This document shows positions 4,111 through 11,204 of a stretch of DNA of 11,204 nt, one piece after another. Source of the DNA: a bacterium (GTDB taxonomy: Bacteria; CSSED10-310; JAJRTK01); NCBI GenBank assembly GCA_024278345.1, contig JAJRTK010000013.1:1-11204 (forward strand), read 5' to 3'. The stretch's first letter is position 1. Each line of letters starts with the position of its first letter. A program made the position numbers and the translations under genes. The notes beneath the pieces were generated by a model. That model had not been told where the DNA came from and made no database searches. It saw only the letters and a list, made by a program, of their open reading frames with translations.

Positions 4111-6912
4111 TTGATTCTTTCTGGTGATTTGAGCGAGAGCACACTTGTTGATGCGTTCCAGATCCTGAGCAGTACTCGAAAGACTGGAATCTTGCACGCC
4201 TCGTGCGCGGACGGCGAGATTCGTATGTACTGGGAGCAGGGAATTTTACTCTATGCTGAAAGTAGTCGTCTTGGGTTGGGTTTGCGGGTGCGGATCGAGG
4301 GGCGCGTTGGTCGGGCCGTGGTCCAGACCGCGATGGAGAAGCATGGCGGTGCGTTGGGTTTGGCGGCGCGGGAGTTGGTGAGAGAGGGGCTCCTGGAGAA
4401 GGAAGTTCTGAAGGCGCTGGCTCGAGAGACATCGTGGCGCGGCATCTTGGATATGTTTTGTTGGGCCGAGGGTGGCTTTGAGTTTTCGGAGGGTCCGTTT
4501 TCCGGGGGTGATGTTGTGGAGGCGGTGCTGGAGCTCCGGCCGCTCCTTTTGGAGGCGAGCCGTCGGGTACAGCAAATGGCGGAGGTCCGAAAGGTTCTGC
4601 CGAATCTCCGGGCGATTTTTCGTCTCTCGGAACTACCGGTCGATAGCATTCGTTCCATTCGCCTCAGCGGTGAAGAGTGGGCCGTGTTGTCTCTCATCGA
4701 TGGGCGCCGGATGGTGGAACAGCTTTGCAAGGCCGCCAAGAGTGAGGAGATCCAGACGCTTTTAACACTTGCCCGGCTGCTTTCAGCAGGATTGATCGTG
4801 CAGGTCGATGACATGGAGCGGACCGACTCGGGGCTGCTGGAGCTCGGGCAGATCAAGTACACGCGGATCCTTGAAGTTTATTGTGAGCTCCACAGTTTGC
4901 TTGCCGATCGGTTGCGATCGGAGGTTGCCGTGGCCTCGGCGCGGCCCATGAGGCAGCTTTTCCGGCAATTGGCTCGGGCTTTTCCGGAGCTCTGGGAGGG
5001 GGGGGTGGTGGATCCGCTGGGTGGCTTGCCGGCGGTGGAGATCCTTTCCAGGATTCTTCGGCAGCCTGTGGACAAGCGAGTGGAGCTGATGGTCTATTCG
5101 TTTGGGCGATTGCTTTTGAAGGAGCTCCTTATCCTGCGGCACCTTTTGGGCGAAGACGCTGGAAAAGAGGCGATTTCGGATATGCGGATGGTGGTTCAGC
5201 TCGGTTCCCGGCGTTATCCGGAAGTGTCGTCGAAGGTATTGCGGCACATTCTGGGGGTGCTGCGGCAGGCCGAGACTTTCCCCAGCCGTTACGCTCAGGG
5301 GTTCGATTGTTTCGAAAACCACCGCTATGCAGAGGCGCTTCGCCATTGGAAGTCGATTCCTCCCAGCAACCCGAAACATGAGTCAGCTCAGAAGCTCATG
5401 GCCCGTGTTCAGAGGTTGATGGCCGGCTGTTCACCGCTGAAGCAGGCGTTGGAGCGGGGGGAAAACGCGGCGCGAGAGGGCTGCTTGGCGAAGGCTATCC
5501 AGATTTGGCAGGAGGCGATGTCGAGATCCCCCAGAGAAGCTGGCAGTGGCGAGGAGACGCGGGCGCGGGAGCTTCTTCTGCGGCGCCTCGATCTGGCTTC
5601 CAGAGTGAACCTCCTCATGGAGGATGCCGGGAAACTGGCGGGAGGACACTGTTACGAGCAGGCCCGTCGAGTGCTCCAAGAGGCCCACAAACTCATGCCT
5701 TACCACCCGGGAACGCGGGCTCTGCTCGAGGAGATCACGGAGAAACTGGATCGGACGGAGAATATCCCGGAGTTGGTGACGGGAGGGCTCGAGCTCTACC
5801 GGAATGAGGAATATGTCTTGGCCATGGAGAAGTTCGAGCGGGTCTTGGCCATGGCTCCTGGCCATCAATTGGCTGCGGATCATCTTCGGTTCAGTCGCGA
5901 TCGGCTTTTGGCGATGGTGTCTACAACGCCTGAATACTCCGATGTTTGGGGCGCGATTCGGGTTGGAAACGCGACGGTGGCGTGCGAGGAGCTGGAGCGA
6001 CTCTTGGCCTTGTCGCCAGAGGATAGCGTGGCGGCCTATTTACTCGGGGAGCAAAAGCGAGAATTGAAGGCTTGCCGCCTCTATGAGGAGGCGATGACCT
6101 ACTGCGAAGAGAGCAAGTTTGAGCGTGCTATCGAGTTGGCGGAAAAGGCGTTGGAAGTCAATCCCAGCCACGCCGAATCCTCACGATTGCGGGAGCGTTG
6201 CAAGCGGAGCCTTCAGGAAGCCACCGAGGCCAGGGAGCTATTCTCTAGGGCAGAGGCTCTTTATCTGGCGGGGAAAATCGAGGAGGCACGAGACGCACTC
6301 GATGCTTGTCTGGTCATCGATCCGCACAACCAAGAGGCGCTCATGGCCAGGGCCCAGGTGGAGCAGTGGGCGGAAGGAGATGATTCCACCAACGTTGCCC
6401 AGCGGGGTACCTTCGTCTATCGTCCTCCAGAGGAGGCCATGGAGGAGGAACCTCGGGATGCCCTCCTGGATGGGGCTTCGGAGCACGTCTATGCCGAGCT
6501 CTTTGATGCGACACCAGCGAGCGGGGTCGAATCGGAGCCCCTAACCCATACGGAAGATCCCACGGAAGTCGAGGCTGCGGTCGTTCACCCGGTGGCTGGC
6601 GGACTGCTTCCGAAACCCGGGGAACCGGAAGCAGAGCCTGCAACGCTGGCGACCGCTTTGATCGAAGATTGTCCGCCGGATCTGGTGGCTGAGGCATGGG
6701 CCAACGACTCCGGGGCTGCCAGTGCTTTCGAGGACCCTCCCACGGAGAAGATCCCCGTTTTCGACGATTGGGAGGCCCAGAATGAGGCATTGAGGGAGGC
6801 GGGAGACGCAGAAGAGAAGCCCGAGGAAGCATCGACGGACAATTTGACGAGGCTCCGCGAGCATGTAGATCGACGGCTCGCGGGCGGTGATGATGGCGCG
6901 AAGCTTCTATAA
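4111..6912 (+). CDS. PATAN/DUF4388 domain protein with TPR repeats and acidic tail
   Basis: The start is TTG at 4111. An in-frame TGA lies at 4087-4089, GAGGAA (4099-4104) sits 6 bases upstream, and the family's conserved LSGDLSE N-terminus begins at residue 3, so no other start fits. Residues 1-130 are a DUF4388 (PATAN) domain (LSGDLSESTLVDAFQILSS, KTGILHAS, GEIRMYWEQGILLYAES). Residues 150-235 contain the helical LSGEEWAVLSLIDGRRMVEQL segment that often follows it. TPR-like helical pairs run from about 395 to 745 (for example 395-430, 555-590, 655-690, 705-740). The last 170 residues are acidic, low in structure and Pro/Glu/Ala-rich. There is no signal peptide, so it is likely a cytoplasmic scaffold. 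PATAN domains are known from bacterial two-component and motility/polarity proteins, but the partner here is unknown. Its 3' end overlaps the glycosyltransferase start by 26 bases, implying co-transcription and coupled translation. Confidence 0.88.
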   Translation: MILSGDLSESTLVDAFQILSSTRKTGILHASCADGEIRMYWEQGILLYAESSRLGLGLRVRIEGRVGRAVVQTAMEKHGGALGLAARELVREGLLEKEVLKALARETSWRGILDMFCWAEGGFEFSEGPFSGGDVVEAVLELRPLLLEASRRVQQMAEVRKVLPNLRAIFRLSELPVDSIRSIRLSGEEWAVLSLIDGRRMVEQLCKAAKSEEIQTLLTLARLLSAGLIVQVDDMERTDSGLLELGQIKYTRILEVYCELHSLLADRLRSEVAVASARPMRQLFRQLARAFPELWEGGVVDPLGGLPAVEILSRILRQPVDKRVELMVYSFGRLLLKELLILRHLLGEDAGKEAISDMRMVVQLGSRRYPEVSSKVLRHILGVLRQAETFPSRYAQGFDCFENHRYAEALRHWKSIPPSNPKHESAQKLMARVQRLMAGCSPLKQALERGENAAREGCLAKAIQIWQEAMSRSPREAGSGEETRARELLLRRLDLASRVNLLMEDAGKLAGGHCYEQARRVLQEAHKLMPYHPGTRALLEEITEKLDRTENIPELVTGGLELYRNEEYVLAMEKFERVLAMAPGHQLAADHLRFSRDRLLAMVSTTPEYSDVWGAIRVGNATVACEELERLLALSPEDSVAAYLLGEQKRELKACRLYEEAMTYCEESKFERAIELAEKALEVNPSHAESSRLRERCKRSLQEATEARELFSRAEALYLAGKIEEARDALDACLVIDPHNQEALMARAQVEQWAEGDDSTNVAQRGTFVYRPPEEAMEEEPRDALLDGASEHVYAELFDATPASGVESEPLTHTEDPTEVEAAVVHPVAGGLLPKPGEPEAEPATLATALIEDCPPDLVAEAWANDSGAASAFEDPPTEKIPVFDDWEAQNEALREAGDAEEKPEEASTDNLTRLREHVDRRLAGGDDGAKLL

Positions 6913-8484: not shown

Positions 8485-9453
8485 TCATTTTTTGTGTTGC
8501 GTTCCGCTCCCGTCACCGGCCATCCGGCCGCCGCCAGTCGCCGCTTCCTCGACGGTCAGGCGCCCTCGGCTGCCGCCCGTTTCGATTCTGGCCATGACCC
8601 CCATGGGAATGGTGAGAGGGTTTGGCAGATGTCCGGTTCGAAGGCCCATGAGGATGGGATAGTCGGTGCCACGGAGGCATTCGAGCACGGCCTCCGGGAT
8701 CGTGAGAGTCGGCTTTGGACGGTCGGGCACACAGTCGGTCAAGGCGCCGATGACCATTCCGCCAAGCTCCTCTAGATGGCCGGCCAGCCGCAAATGGGTG
8801 AGCATCCGGTCGATCTGATAGGGCTCCTCCCCCACATCTTCCCAAAAGAGGATCGCCCCCGTAAGATCGGGCATAAATTCGGTTCCCACAAGGCGCGAAA
8901 GGAGCGACAGGCAGCCCCCAAGGAGAGGGCCTTGCCCCCGACCGGACCGGAGGATCTGTGGCGCCGGAAGATCGCCAAGGGGCCGGGAAGAGGTTGCCTG
9001 GAGCAGGTGTTGAAAAGCGGTTTTTCCGTGGGGACCGGCGATATCCACGGCGGCCAGGAGCCCGTGGAATCCCATGAGATTCGCCTGGCGGTAGGCCGCC
9101 AAGAGGATCGCCGTGAAGTCGCTGTACCCGATGAGTATCTTGGGGTCGTCCGCCAGGCGGTAGAGATCGAGCCGGTGCAGAATCCGGAGTGCTCCATAAC
9201 CGCCACGGACGGCCATGATCGCCCGGATTTTTGGATCGGCCAGGGCGTGATTCATGGCCTTGGCCCTGGAATCGTCGTCGCCAGCCAGATAACCGTGACT
9301 GGAGCAGGCATTTTCCGCGACATCGGTCTTGAATCCGGCGGATTGGATCAGTCTGACGGCAGCCTCGATTTTGCCGTGTTCCGCTGGATAGGAGGGGGCG
9401 CAGAGATGGATCGTATCGCCGGGTTGAAGCGGGGGAGGGCGTCGAGGTTCCAT
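8485..9453 (-). CDS. ldcA: LD-carboxypeptidase, peptidase family S66 (muramoyltetrapeptide carboxypeptidase)
   Basis: This 322-residue protein is close to the usual family length (about 300). It cleaves the terminal D-Ala from L,D-linked muropeptide tetrapeptides during peptidoglycan recycling or maturation; MccF immunity proteins share the fold. The family features are present: PPPLQPGDTIHLCAPS at the N-terminus, SHGYLAGDDDSRAKAMNHAL (52-71), IRAIMAVRGGYGALRIL (77-92), the nucleophile motif GYSD with S111, GPLLGGCLSLL (175-185), the acid in FWEDVGEEPYQIDRML (E205), and the His in GLRTGHLPNPLTIPMG (H275). The Ser-Glu-His triad is therefore complete. No signal peptide is present, which fits a cytoplasmic recycling enzyme. 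The ATG at 9453 has AGGA six bases upstream on its strand. It is convergent with the glycosyltransferase (20-base gap) and divergent from the bactofilin. The last 15 residues are a variable polar tail. Confidence 0.92.
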   Translation of the reverse strand: MEPRRPPPLQPGDTIHLCAPSYPAEHGKIEAAVRLIQSAGFKTDVAENACSSHGYLAGDDDSRAKAMNHALADPKIRAIMAVRGGYGALRILHRLDLYRLADDPKILIGYSDFTAILLAAYRQANLMGFHGLLAAVDIAGPHGKTAFQHLLQATSSRPLGDLPAPQILRSGRGQGPLLGGCLSLLSRLVGTEFMPDLTGAILFWEDVGEEPYQIDRMLTHLRLAGHLEELGGMVIGALTDCVPDRPKPTLTIPEAVLECLRGTDYPILMGLRTGHLPNPLTIPMGVMARIETGGSRGRLTVEEAATGGGRMAGDGSGTQHKK

Positions 9454-9498
9454 TGGTTATCCTGGGTTTTGATGGTAAACTTCCCCTGTGTGCCGGAT

Positions 9499-9520
9499 CG
9501 CGCCGAAGGCGCGTTTTATT
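9499..9520 (+). terminator. Intrinsic terminator upstream of the bactofilin promoter
   Basis: CGCGCC (9499-9504) pairs perfectly with GGCGCG (9508-9513) across a GAA loop, followed on the plus strand by TTTTATT (9514-9520). This is a compact Rho-independent terminator. On the plus strand no gene ends just upstream (that stretch is antisense to ldcA), so it would stop stray plus-strand transcription before the bactofilin promoter. On the minus strand the hairpin would be in the ldcA leader without a T-tract. Confidence 0.55.
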
Positions 9521-9547
9521 GGCTGGAAGCATCGCGCCGGTTAGCAT
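9519..9547 (+). promoter_or_regulatory. Candidate sigma-70-type promoter for the bactofilin gene
   Basis: TTGGCT (9519-9524) and TAGCAT (9542-9547) are separated by exactly 17 bases, each matching four of six consensus positions, and lie 45 bases before the bactofilin ATG. The -35 box overlaps the end of the terminator T-tract. A 9-base direct repeat ATCGCGCCG occurs at 9497-9505 and 9531-9539, the second copy inside the spacer. Confidence 0.35.
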
Positions 9548-9592
9548 TCTAGACAGGCGTGCTCTGTTGCGGGACGAGGCGAGGATCATCAG

Positions 9593-9913
9593 ATGAAATC
9601 GAATTCTTTGATAGGGAATAAGACGTTTATCATGGGCAAAATCCAGGCCGAAGAACCGTTGGTCATCCGTGGCCGGGTTCAAGGGGAGGTCAGAAATACG
9701 GCGGACGTCTTCGTTGGCGAGGAAGGGCATGTCGTGGCCGAGGTCCACGGACAGACCATCACCGTCAGCGGTTATGCGGAGGGCGCGGTCTATTGCCAGG
9801 ATCTTTTTTGCCTTCACCAGTCCGGGACGATGAATGGCGATGTCCATTCGCCCAGGATCCAGATTGAGGAAGGCTCGACCTTTCAGGGCACCATCGATAT
9901 GGCGCGACGCTAA
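9593..9913 (+). CDS. Bactofilin (polymer-forming cytoskeletal protein)
   Basis: At 106 residues this is a short bactofilin (DUF583/BacM/CcmA-like) consisting almost only of the beta-helical core. Evidence is the N-terminal SLIGNKTFIMGKIQAEEPL, then the repeating short-strand pattern VIRGRVQGEV, DVFVGEEGHVVAEV, TITVSGYAEGAV, MNGDVHSPRIQIEEGSTFQG, with the typical regular Gly spacing. Bactofilins form filaments without nucleotide, often membrane-bound, and scaffold cell-wall enzymes in stalk, curvature or shape control. The start ATG at 9593 has AGGA eight bases upstream; the short N-terminal tail has no clear membrane-targeting helix. It is divergent from the LD-carboxypeptidase, a peptidoglycan enzyme, which suits a cell-wall role. 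It has its own candidate promoter and terminator insulation. It converges with the DipZ-like gene (49-base gap). Confidence 0.92.
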   Translation: MKSNSLIGNKTFIMGKIQAEEPLVIRGRVQGEVRNTADVFVGEEGHVVAEVHGQTITVSGYAEGAVYCQDLFCLHQSGTMNGDVHSPRIQIEEGSTFQGTIDMARR

Positions 9914-9962: not shown

Positions 9963-11204
9963 CTATCCAGACTGCTTGGCTCCCTCGGTCGTGAAGCCGC
10001 TCTTGTAGACGCGCAACCCGTCGGTGTGGCATCGAATCTTCAGATGATGCCGCCGTAGATGTTCGCCGCTAAGCAGGTGATAGAGTCGAAATTCCAGGAT
10101 CGGGATTGATTTGCCCCCGGAGGTTTGCTCCTTCGCCCAGTCTTTTGTCGCCGATTCGGACGGAATTAAGCCTGCCGTGGATTCGATTTCGATCTCCGCG
10201 CCTGCCGCGGCCTCCGCCAACAAATAGATGTCTTTTGCCGTGCATTGGATCTCTAGGGTGGAGGGCTCTCCATCCATCGGTCTGGTCACGAGGCACTCGG
10301 CCTCGCACTGCCATCCGCCGCCAAGACTTGGCCGCTCTTGGCGCGGCGTCACACTCCCCTCGTAGATGATCGTTTGGTGTGGCAGATACCCCTGCGGGTT
10401 TGCGATCTGCCCGAATCGATAGCCAAGGTGGATCTCGTCGGTTGCCGTCAGGATGACCCTTCCCGGAGTGTCTTCCGGAAAAAGCGGGTCCAGAAGCCTG
10501 ACGGAGGTTGGCATTCGTTTGGCCAGGATGCGCTGGAGGTCGATTTCGATTTGACGTGGGCTTGTTCCCGGCGGGTAGTTTTGTTTGAGCTTTCCCCCGG
10601 GCCGGAAGAGGAGGCAGCACCCAAGACCCGTGCCACCAAGGCCCTTGAAGACTTCTTCTTGTGGTGAATCCGCCACAACAGGGAGATTCAGTTTCTGGTA
10701 CTGGAGAGTGGTTTTGATGGCCAGGGGGTCGCGGGCCCGATCCAGGTCTGAACGGTGGATTGTGACCAGGCGGAGGCCATGTTTCTCGTAACGCTCCCGC
10801 CACGCCTGGAAATAGTGGAGCAATCTCAGTGTACCGATGGAGGTCAGGGAGAAGAAGCCGATAAGGCACGGGCCCTCTTCCAGAAGCTCCAAATTCCCTT
10901 GGATCAGGTTTCCATGAGCGAGTACATCAGACGGAGTTTGCCACTCAACAGGATTCTCACCAGCGGCCTCACCGCCTGGAGTAGATAGAAAAGGCCGCCG
11001 GGAATCTCCGCGGCCCGAGCGTCCGCCATCCCTGAAAGGCCGCCGGGAATCTCCGCCGCCCGAGCGTCCGCCATCCCTGAAAGGCCGCCGGGAATCTCCG
11101 CGGCCCGAGCGTCCGCCCTCCCTGAAAGGCCGCCGGGAATCTCCGCCGCCCGAGCGTCCGCCATCCCTGAAAGGCCGCCGGGAATCTCCGCCGCCAGAGC
11201 GTCC
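9963..11204 (-). CDS. Arg/Gly-repeat protein with redox-inactive DipZ-like thioredoxin fold, 5' end outside window
   Basis: The frame is open without a stop from the TAG at 9963-9965 to the right edge (413 codons), and there is no in-frame ATG, GTG or TTG before the TTG at 10892. That TTG encodes an ordinary Leu inside the first strand region of the fold, so the gene starts beyond the window. Numbering from the edge: residues 1-71 are five copies of a 15-residue unit (FRDGGRSGGGDSRRP, with G/R and D/E variation, the first partial), 72-104 a linker, about 105-230 a thioredoxin-like fold (EEGPCLIGFFSLTSIGTLR; GLRLVTIHR; NLPVVADSP; CCLLFRPGGKL), and 230-413 a beta-rich domain like the C-terminus of DipZ-type proteins (EIHLGYRFGQIANPQG, LGGGWQCEAECLV, IQCTAKDIYLLAEA, EFRLYHLLSGEHLRRHHLKI, GLRVYKSGF). 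The CxxC position reads S122-I-G-T125 and the cis-Pro is not seen, so disulfide chemistry is unlikely. Function unknown; scaffolding or binding is inferred. Confidence 0.72.
   Translation of the reverse strand, partial: GRSGGGDSRRPFRDGGRSGGGDSRRPFREGGRSGRGDSRRPFRDGGRSGGGDSRRPFRDGGRSGRGDSRRPFLSTPGGEAAGENPVEWQTPSDVLAHGNLIQGNLELLEEGPCLIGFFSLTSIGTLRLLHYFQAWRERYEKHGLRLVTIHRSDLDRARDPLAIKTTLQYQKLNLPVVADSPQEEVFKGLGGTGLGCCLLFRPGGKLKQNYPPGTSPRQIEIDLQRILAKRMPTSVRLLDPLFPEDTPGRVILTATDEIHLGYRFGQIANPQGYLPHQTIIYEGSVTPRQERPSLGGGWQCEAECLVTRPMDGEPSTLEIQCTAKDIYLLAEAAAGAEIEIESTAGLIPSESATKDWAKEQTSGGKSIPILEFRLYHLLSGEHLRRHHLKIRCHTDGLRVYKSGFTTEGAKQSG
10993..11204. repeat. 45-bp tandem repeats, 4.7 copies, running off the right edge
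   Basis: Units are 10993-11037, 11038-11082, 11083-11127, 11128-11172 and a partial copy 11173-11204. They are nearly identical. Unit position 20 alternates G, C, G, C, C; copy 3 has C instead of A in its CCATCC segment; and the partial copy has CCAGAG for CCCGAG. The 45-bp length keeps the reading frame. They lie inside the minus-strand gene and encode its Arg/Gly-rich units. Confidence 0.95.

What the first reader, a model, noticed from the sequence alone, without database searches (positions are those of the whole stretch)
9963..11204. Arg/Gly/Asp-rich tandem repeats joined in frame to a DipZ-like thioredoxin fold
Seen directly: one minus-strand frame without stops links five 15-residue units (consensus FRDGGRSGGGDSRRP) to a thioredoxin-like fold and a DipZ-type C-terminal domain. 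An automatic caller would start this gene at the TTG at 10892 and lose the repeats. Known: Arg/Gly-rich low-complexity repeats usually belong to RNA-binding or phase-separating tails, whereas DipZ-type C-terminal modules are normally envelope redox proteins. Inferred: the combination may be an envelope or nucleic-acid scaffold of a new type.
Basis: partly seen in the sequence, partly recalled or inferred. Interest (0 to 1): 0.7.

Follow-up and report, generated by a model that had tools for sequence, protein, structure and literature searches.

The report
Dead DipZ-like domain beside cut repeat
The contig ends inside a short DNA repeat next to a gene for a DipZ-type thioredoxin-fold protein that has lost its catalytic residues; whether the repeat is part of that protein cannot be decided from this sequence, so the proposed new kind of scaffold is not shown.

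Summary
The stop-free frame, the five 15-codon repeat units and the DipZ-type fold are all there. The claim that the repeats belong to this protein is not established.

The folded part is a DipZ C-terminal module: Pfam Thioredoxin_10, with M. tuberculosis DipZ as best structure match at Z 27.4 over 277 residues. The catalytic CxxC is S122-I-G-T125 and the cis-proline is G195, so it is probably not an oxidoreductase. CxxC is also lost in 44 of 64 relatives, so that loss is not unusual. The missing cis-proline is unique to this protein in the sample.

The repeat sits at the contig end; the window is the whole contig. It has no stop in five of six frames, so openness proves little. The segment joining repeat and domain has codon usage in the lowest 0.7% of coding windows here. 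Codon statistics favour another frame, whose ORF stops 11 bases before TTG 10892. Against that, the TTG lacks a well-spaced ribosome-binding site. I put the in-frame fusion at about even odds.

No relative carries the repeat, and the unit has no RGG triplet. This is a degenerate new member of a known family with an unresolved N-terminus.

The parts
10989..11204 (-).
10904..11203 (-). Rival open frame (+1) through the array: units DARAAEIPGGLSGMA, ending at TGA 10904-10906
   Evidence: favoured by codon statistics
10893..10988 (-).
10890..10892 (-). TTG, only usual start codon in frame ahead of the fold; AAGGG lies 3 nt upstream, closer than this genome's usual 5-11 nt
10512..10907 (-). Thioredoxin-like fold (residues about 100-231)
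   Evidence: AlphaFold2 model with pLDDT mostly above 90 from residue 111 on; fold matches
10830..10841 (-). Degenerate active site: S122-I-G-T125 in place of CxxC
10620..10622 (-). G195 in place of the cis-proline that all 64 aligned relatives keep
9975..10460 (-). C-terminal beta-sandwich (Thioredoxin_10, Pfam PF17991, best stretch residues 255-401)
   Evidence: E 3.8e-10, 40.9 bits, cut-off 27.1

Best explanation
The gene encodes a two-domain protein of the DipZ C-terminal kind: a thioredoxin-like fold followed by a beta-sandwich. Shown: the family match, the predicted fold, and the loss of both the CxxC and the cis-proline. Inferred: the protein no longer does thiol-disulfide exchange and instead works by binding, with the dead thioredoxin fold as a protein- or ligand-binding platform and the beta-sandwich (which resembles a domain of a carbohydrate esterase) as a second binding surface. 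The repeat next to it is a young minisatellite of 15 codons, one of several in this genome, at which the assembly broke. Whether it is translated in frame with the domain as a disordered N-terminal tail, or belongs to a separate upstream ORF in another frame, or is not translated, is not settled; I put the in-frame fusion at about half.
For: Thioredoxin_10 above its cut-off. AlphaFold2 model confident from residue 111 to 410 and disordered before 104. Best PDB matches are the DipZ C-terminal domains, Foldseek E 3.7e-18 and Z 27.4, rmsd 2.4, 277 aligned. S122..T125 and G195 at the catalytic positions. A family profile built without the window protein scores it at 142 bits, aligning from residue 108 only. 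Array open in five frames; rival frame favoured statistically; other tandem arrays in the same genome, many with periods divisible by three, several at contig ends.
Against: Binding function is inference only; no ligand site was tested. The beta-sandwich's likeness to a carbohydrate-esterase domain is a fold match (2waa, Z 12.2) and does not show sugar binding. A dead active site could also mean a decaying gene, though the reading frame is intact and the fold region scores as coding (+48.6 bits over non-coding).
Confidence: 0.62

Rival explanations
1. In-frame fusion: the repeats are a translated, disordered, Arg/Gly/Asp-rich N-terminal tail or linker of the dead DipZ-type protein, with the true start beyond the contig end.
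For: No stop through 104 codons ahead of the fold, and no ATG/GTG/TTG between array and TTG 10892. TTG lacks a well-spaced ribosome-binding site and would cut the first predicted helix, residues 100-110. Relatives that could be judged begin further upstream than the TTG equivalent. Variation among units is gentler in this frame: one silent change, one D/E, one G/R.
Against: Joining segment has codon usage in the lowest 0.7% of coding windows and scores -6.5 bits against non-coding, versus +5.0 for the +1 frame; only 3% of true-frame windows show such a deficit. Residues 73-104 align to the family's N-terminus no better than their own shuffles (470 of 1000 as good). No relative has such a tail.
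Confidence: 0.48
2. Two genes: the array is the 3' end of a separate upstream ORF in the +1 frame ending at TGA 10904, and the DipZ-type gene starts at TTG 10892, 11 bases on, by translational coupling.
For: Codon model prefers +1 in the array (+14.9 versus -8.2 bits) and in the joining segment; the stop lies just ahead of the TTG.
Against: The array's five units are not independent, so its score is worth only 2-4 bits. TTG start without a well-spaced Shine-Dalgarno. The +1 product has no credible family match and radical L/R and M/R changes between units.
Confidence: 0.4
3. The array is a non-coding intergenic minisatellite and only the domain is translated.
For: The genome has arrays whose period is not a multiple of three too, such as a 23-bp unit at several contig ends; the array is open in five frames for trivial reasons.
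Against: Its period is a multiple of three, as for most long-period arrays in the sample (22 of 36), which fits coding repeats better.
Confidence: 0.12

Closest known systems
C-terminal domains of Mycobacterium tuberculosis DipZ (PDB 2hyx, 5cyy)
   Same: Same two-domain order and fold over 277 residues, Z 27.4
   Different: DipZ has SCINC at the active site (PMC6107167) and, from general knowledge, a CcdA-like membrane part; here CxxC and cis-proline are lost, and what precedes the domain is unknown
Pfam PF17991 Thioredoxin_10
   Same: Matches above the curated cut-off
   Different: Low score (40.9 bits) and very long branch (3.38 changes per column)
CxxC-less relatives in Solirubrobacterales and Thermoleophilaceae (e.g. 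L053, L055) and in Ignavibacteriota (L041, L042)
   Same: Thioredoxin-like domain of the same family with active-site cysteines replaced
   Different: They keep the cis-proline and have no such repeat ahead of the domain
NHLRC2 thioredoxin-like domain
   Same: Relative in fold; reported to lack classical insulin-reduction activity (PMC6107167)
   Different: Has CCINC and an NHL propeller

Membership tests
DipZ C-terminal module / Thioredoxin_10 | Thioredoxin-like fold followed by the family's beta-sandwich | tested here: met
   Pfam; model; PDB matches
DipZ C-terminal module / Thioredoxin_10 | Redox-active CxxC (defines the enzyme, not the fold family) | tested here: not met
   S122..T125; also lost in 44 of 64 aligned relatives, so it does not define descent, but the protein should not be called a DipZ-type oxidoreductase
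DipZ C-terminal module / Thioredoxin_10 | cis-Proline opposite the active site | tested here: not met
   G195; proline in all 64 relatives
Full-length DipZ | N-terminal CcdA-like membrane part | not testable with these tools
   Contig ends in the array; no other contig carries it
RGG/RG-motif proteins | Clustered RGG or RG motifs | tested here: not met
   Reading the 72 residues: no RGG, two RG
RGG/RG-motif proteins | The low-complexity stretch is translated as part of the protein | tested here: inconclusive

The most novel reading that the evidence does not exclude
The repeats are translated in frame, giving a redox-dead DipZ-type module with a disordered, positively charged N-terminal repeat tail, an architecture seen in none of the 64 aligned relatives, acting as a non-enzymatic binding scaffold.
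Probability: 0.25. Interest if true: 0.35.

Novelty: new member of a known kind. Interest (0 to 1): 0.15.

Why it matters
Mostly as a caution: in GC-rich contigs a stop-free frame through a tandem repeat is weak evidence for a fusion, above all at a contig end. It also shows that loss of the catalytic cysteines is common in the sampled DipZ-type family (45 of 65 proteins, in several phyla), which would be worth asking about in its own right.

Tried and rejected
Own-genome search for the array's other flank: only this contig. Same-phylum genomes: none of seven has the domain, and their neighbourhoods of the LD-carboxypeptidase gene show no shared order, so synteny could not reveal the upstream part. 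Repeat peptide in same-phylum genomes: only weak hits, none of them a convincing relative. Repeat pattern in viral contigs: none. First genome-contig scan with the whole protein found nothing; the second, with a profile, gave 57 relatives. My own early argument that the family's conserved W (W88 here) proves translation of the joining segment was dropped after the shuffle test. A first regular-expression table of active-site states was misaligned and was replaced by an alignment-based one. Papers on RGG proteins and on redox-inactive thioredoxin domains gave nothing specific.

Full report
What is there. The window is the whole of contig C246 of a 6.06-Mb, 550-contig assembly. Minus-strand 9963-11204 is open for 413 codons and runs off the contig. 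Its first 72 codons are five near-identical 45-bp units.

The folded part. Residues 255-401 match Thioredoxin_10. A model built on 14 relatives is confident from residue 111 to about 410, with a thioredoxin fold and a beta-sandwich, and disordered before residue 104. The C-terminal domains of M. tuberculosis DipZ are the best match by two methods. A profile of relatives made without this protein finds it at 142 bits, but aligns only from residue 108.

The active site. Aligned with 64 relatives, the CxxC positions are S122 and T125, and the cis-proline is G195. CxxC is lost in 45 of the 65 proteins, including all those from Solirubrobacterales and Thermoleophilaceae in the sample; the tree needs at least four changes and its well-supported branches force two. 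The missing cis-proline is unique to this protein. Its branch is the longest in the tree, so its position is unsure. The inferred role is binding rather than catalysis.

Is the repeat part of the protein? For: no stop, no usual start codon between array and TTG 10892, a TTG without a well-spaced ribosome-binding site, relatives that start further upstream, and mild variation among units in this frame. The training ORFs were chosen by length alone, so some are spurious, and an unusual disordered tail could mislead such statistics. I call it about even.

Context. In 662 kb of the same genome plus the window there are 44 tandem-array rows (overlapping rows can describe one array); of those with period 15 or more, 22 of 36 have a period divisible by three, and several arrays lie at contig ends. 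So a repeat at a contig end is what this assembly does, and in-frame minisatellites are part of this genome.

Verdict. The protein is a degenerate member of a known family.

Noticed in passing
L149:7885-11055 (contig C250 of the same genome): A 1057-residue open frame that looks like an exported subtilisin-type protease (by eye, not scanned) carries about 34 degenerate copies of a nine-residue repeat, consensus QDWLLSPAG, in its C-terminal part.
   Followed up: partly
L098:1-111, L149:16225-16324, L153:1-95, L175:20-126 and others: A 23-bp unit with a short palindrome (GTCACGTTTGCGTGAC) recurs in tandem or singly on 11 of 64 sampled stretches, often at contig ends.
   Followed up: partly
window 8485-9913: A bactofilin gene (9593-9913, +) and an LD-carboxypeptidase-type gene (8485-9453, -) are divergent neighbours. 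The carboxypeptidase has a match in all seven same-phylum genomes; no bactofilin match was found in the fetched neighbourhoods of six of them.
   Followed up: partly
L041, L042 and most of L046-L094: Many relatives of the DipZ-type family in Actinomycetota and Ignavibacteriota lack CxxC, for example WDFCRPNSLRTLPYL, yet keep the cis-proline.
   Followed up: partly
window 4111-6912: A 933-residue frame combines an N-terminal DUF4388 domain with C-terminal TPR repeats.
   Followed up: no
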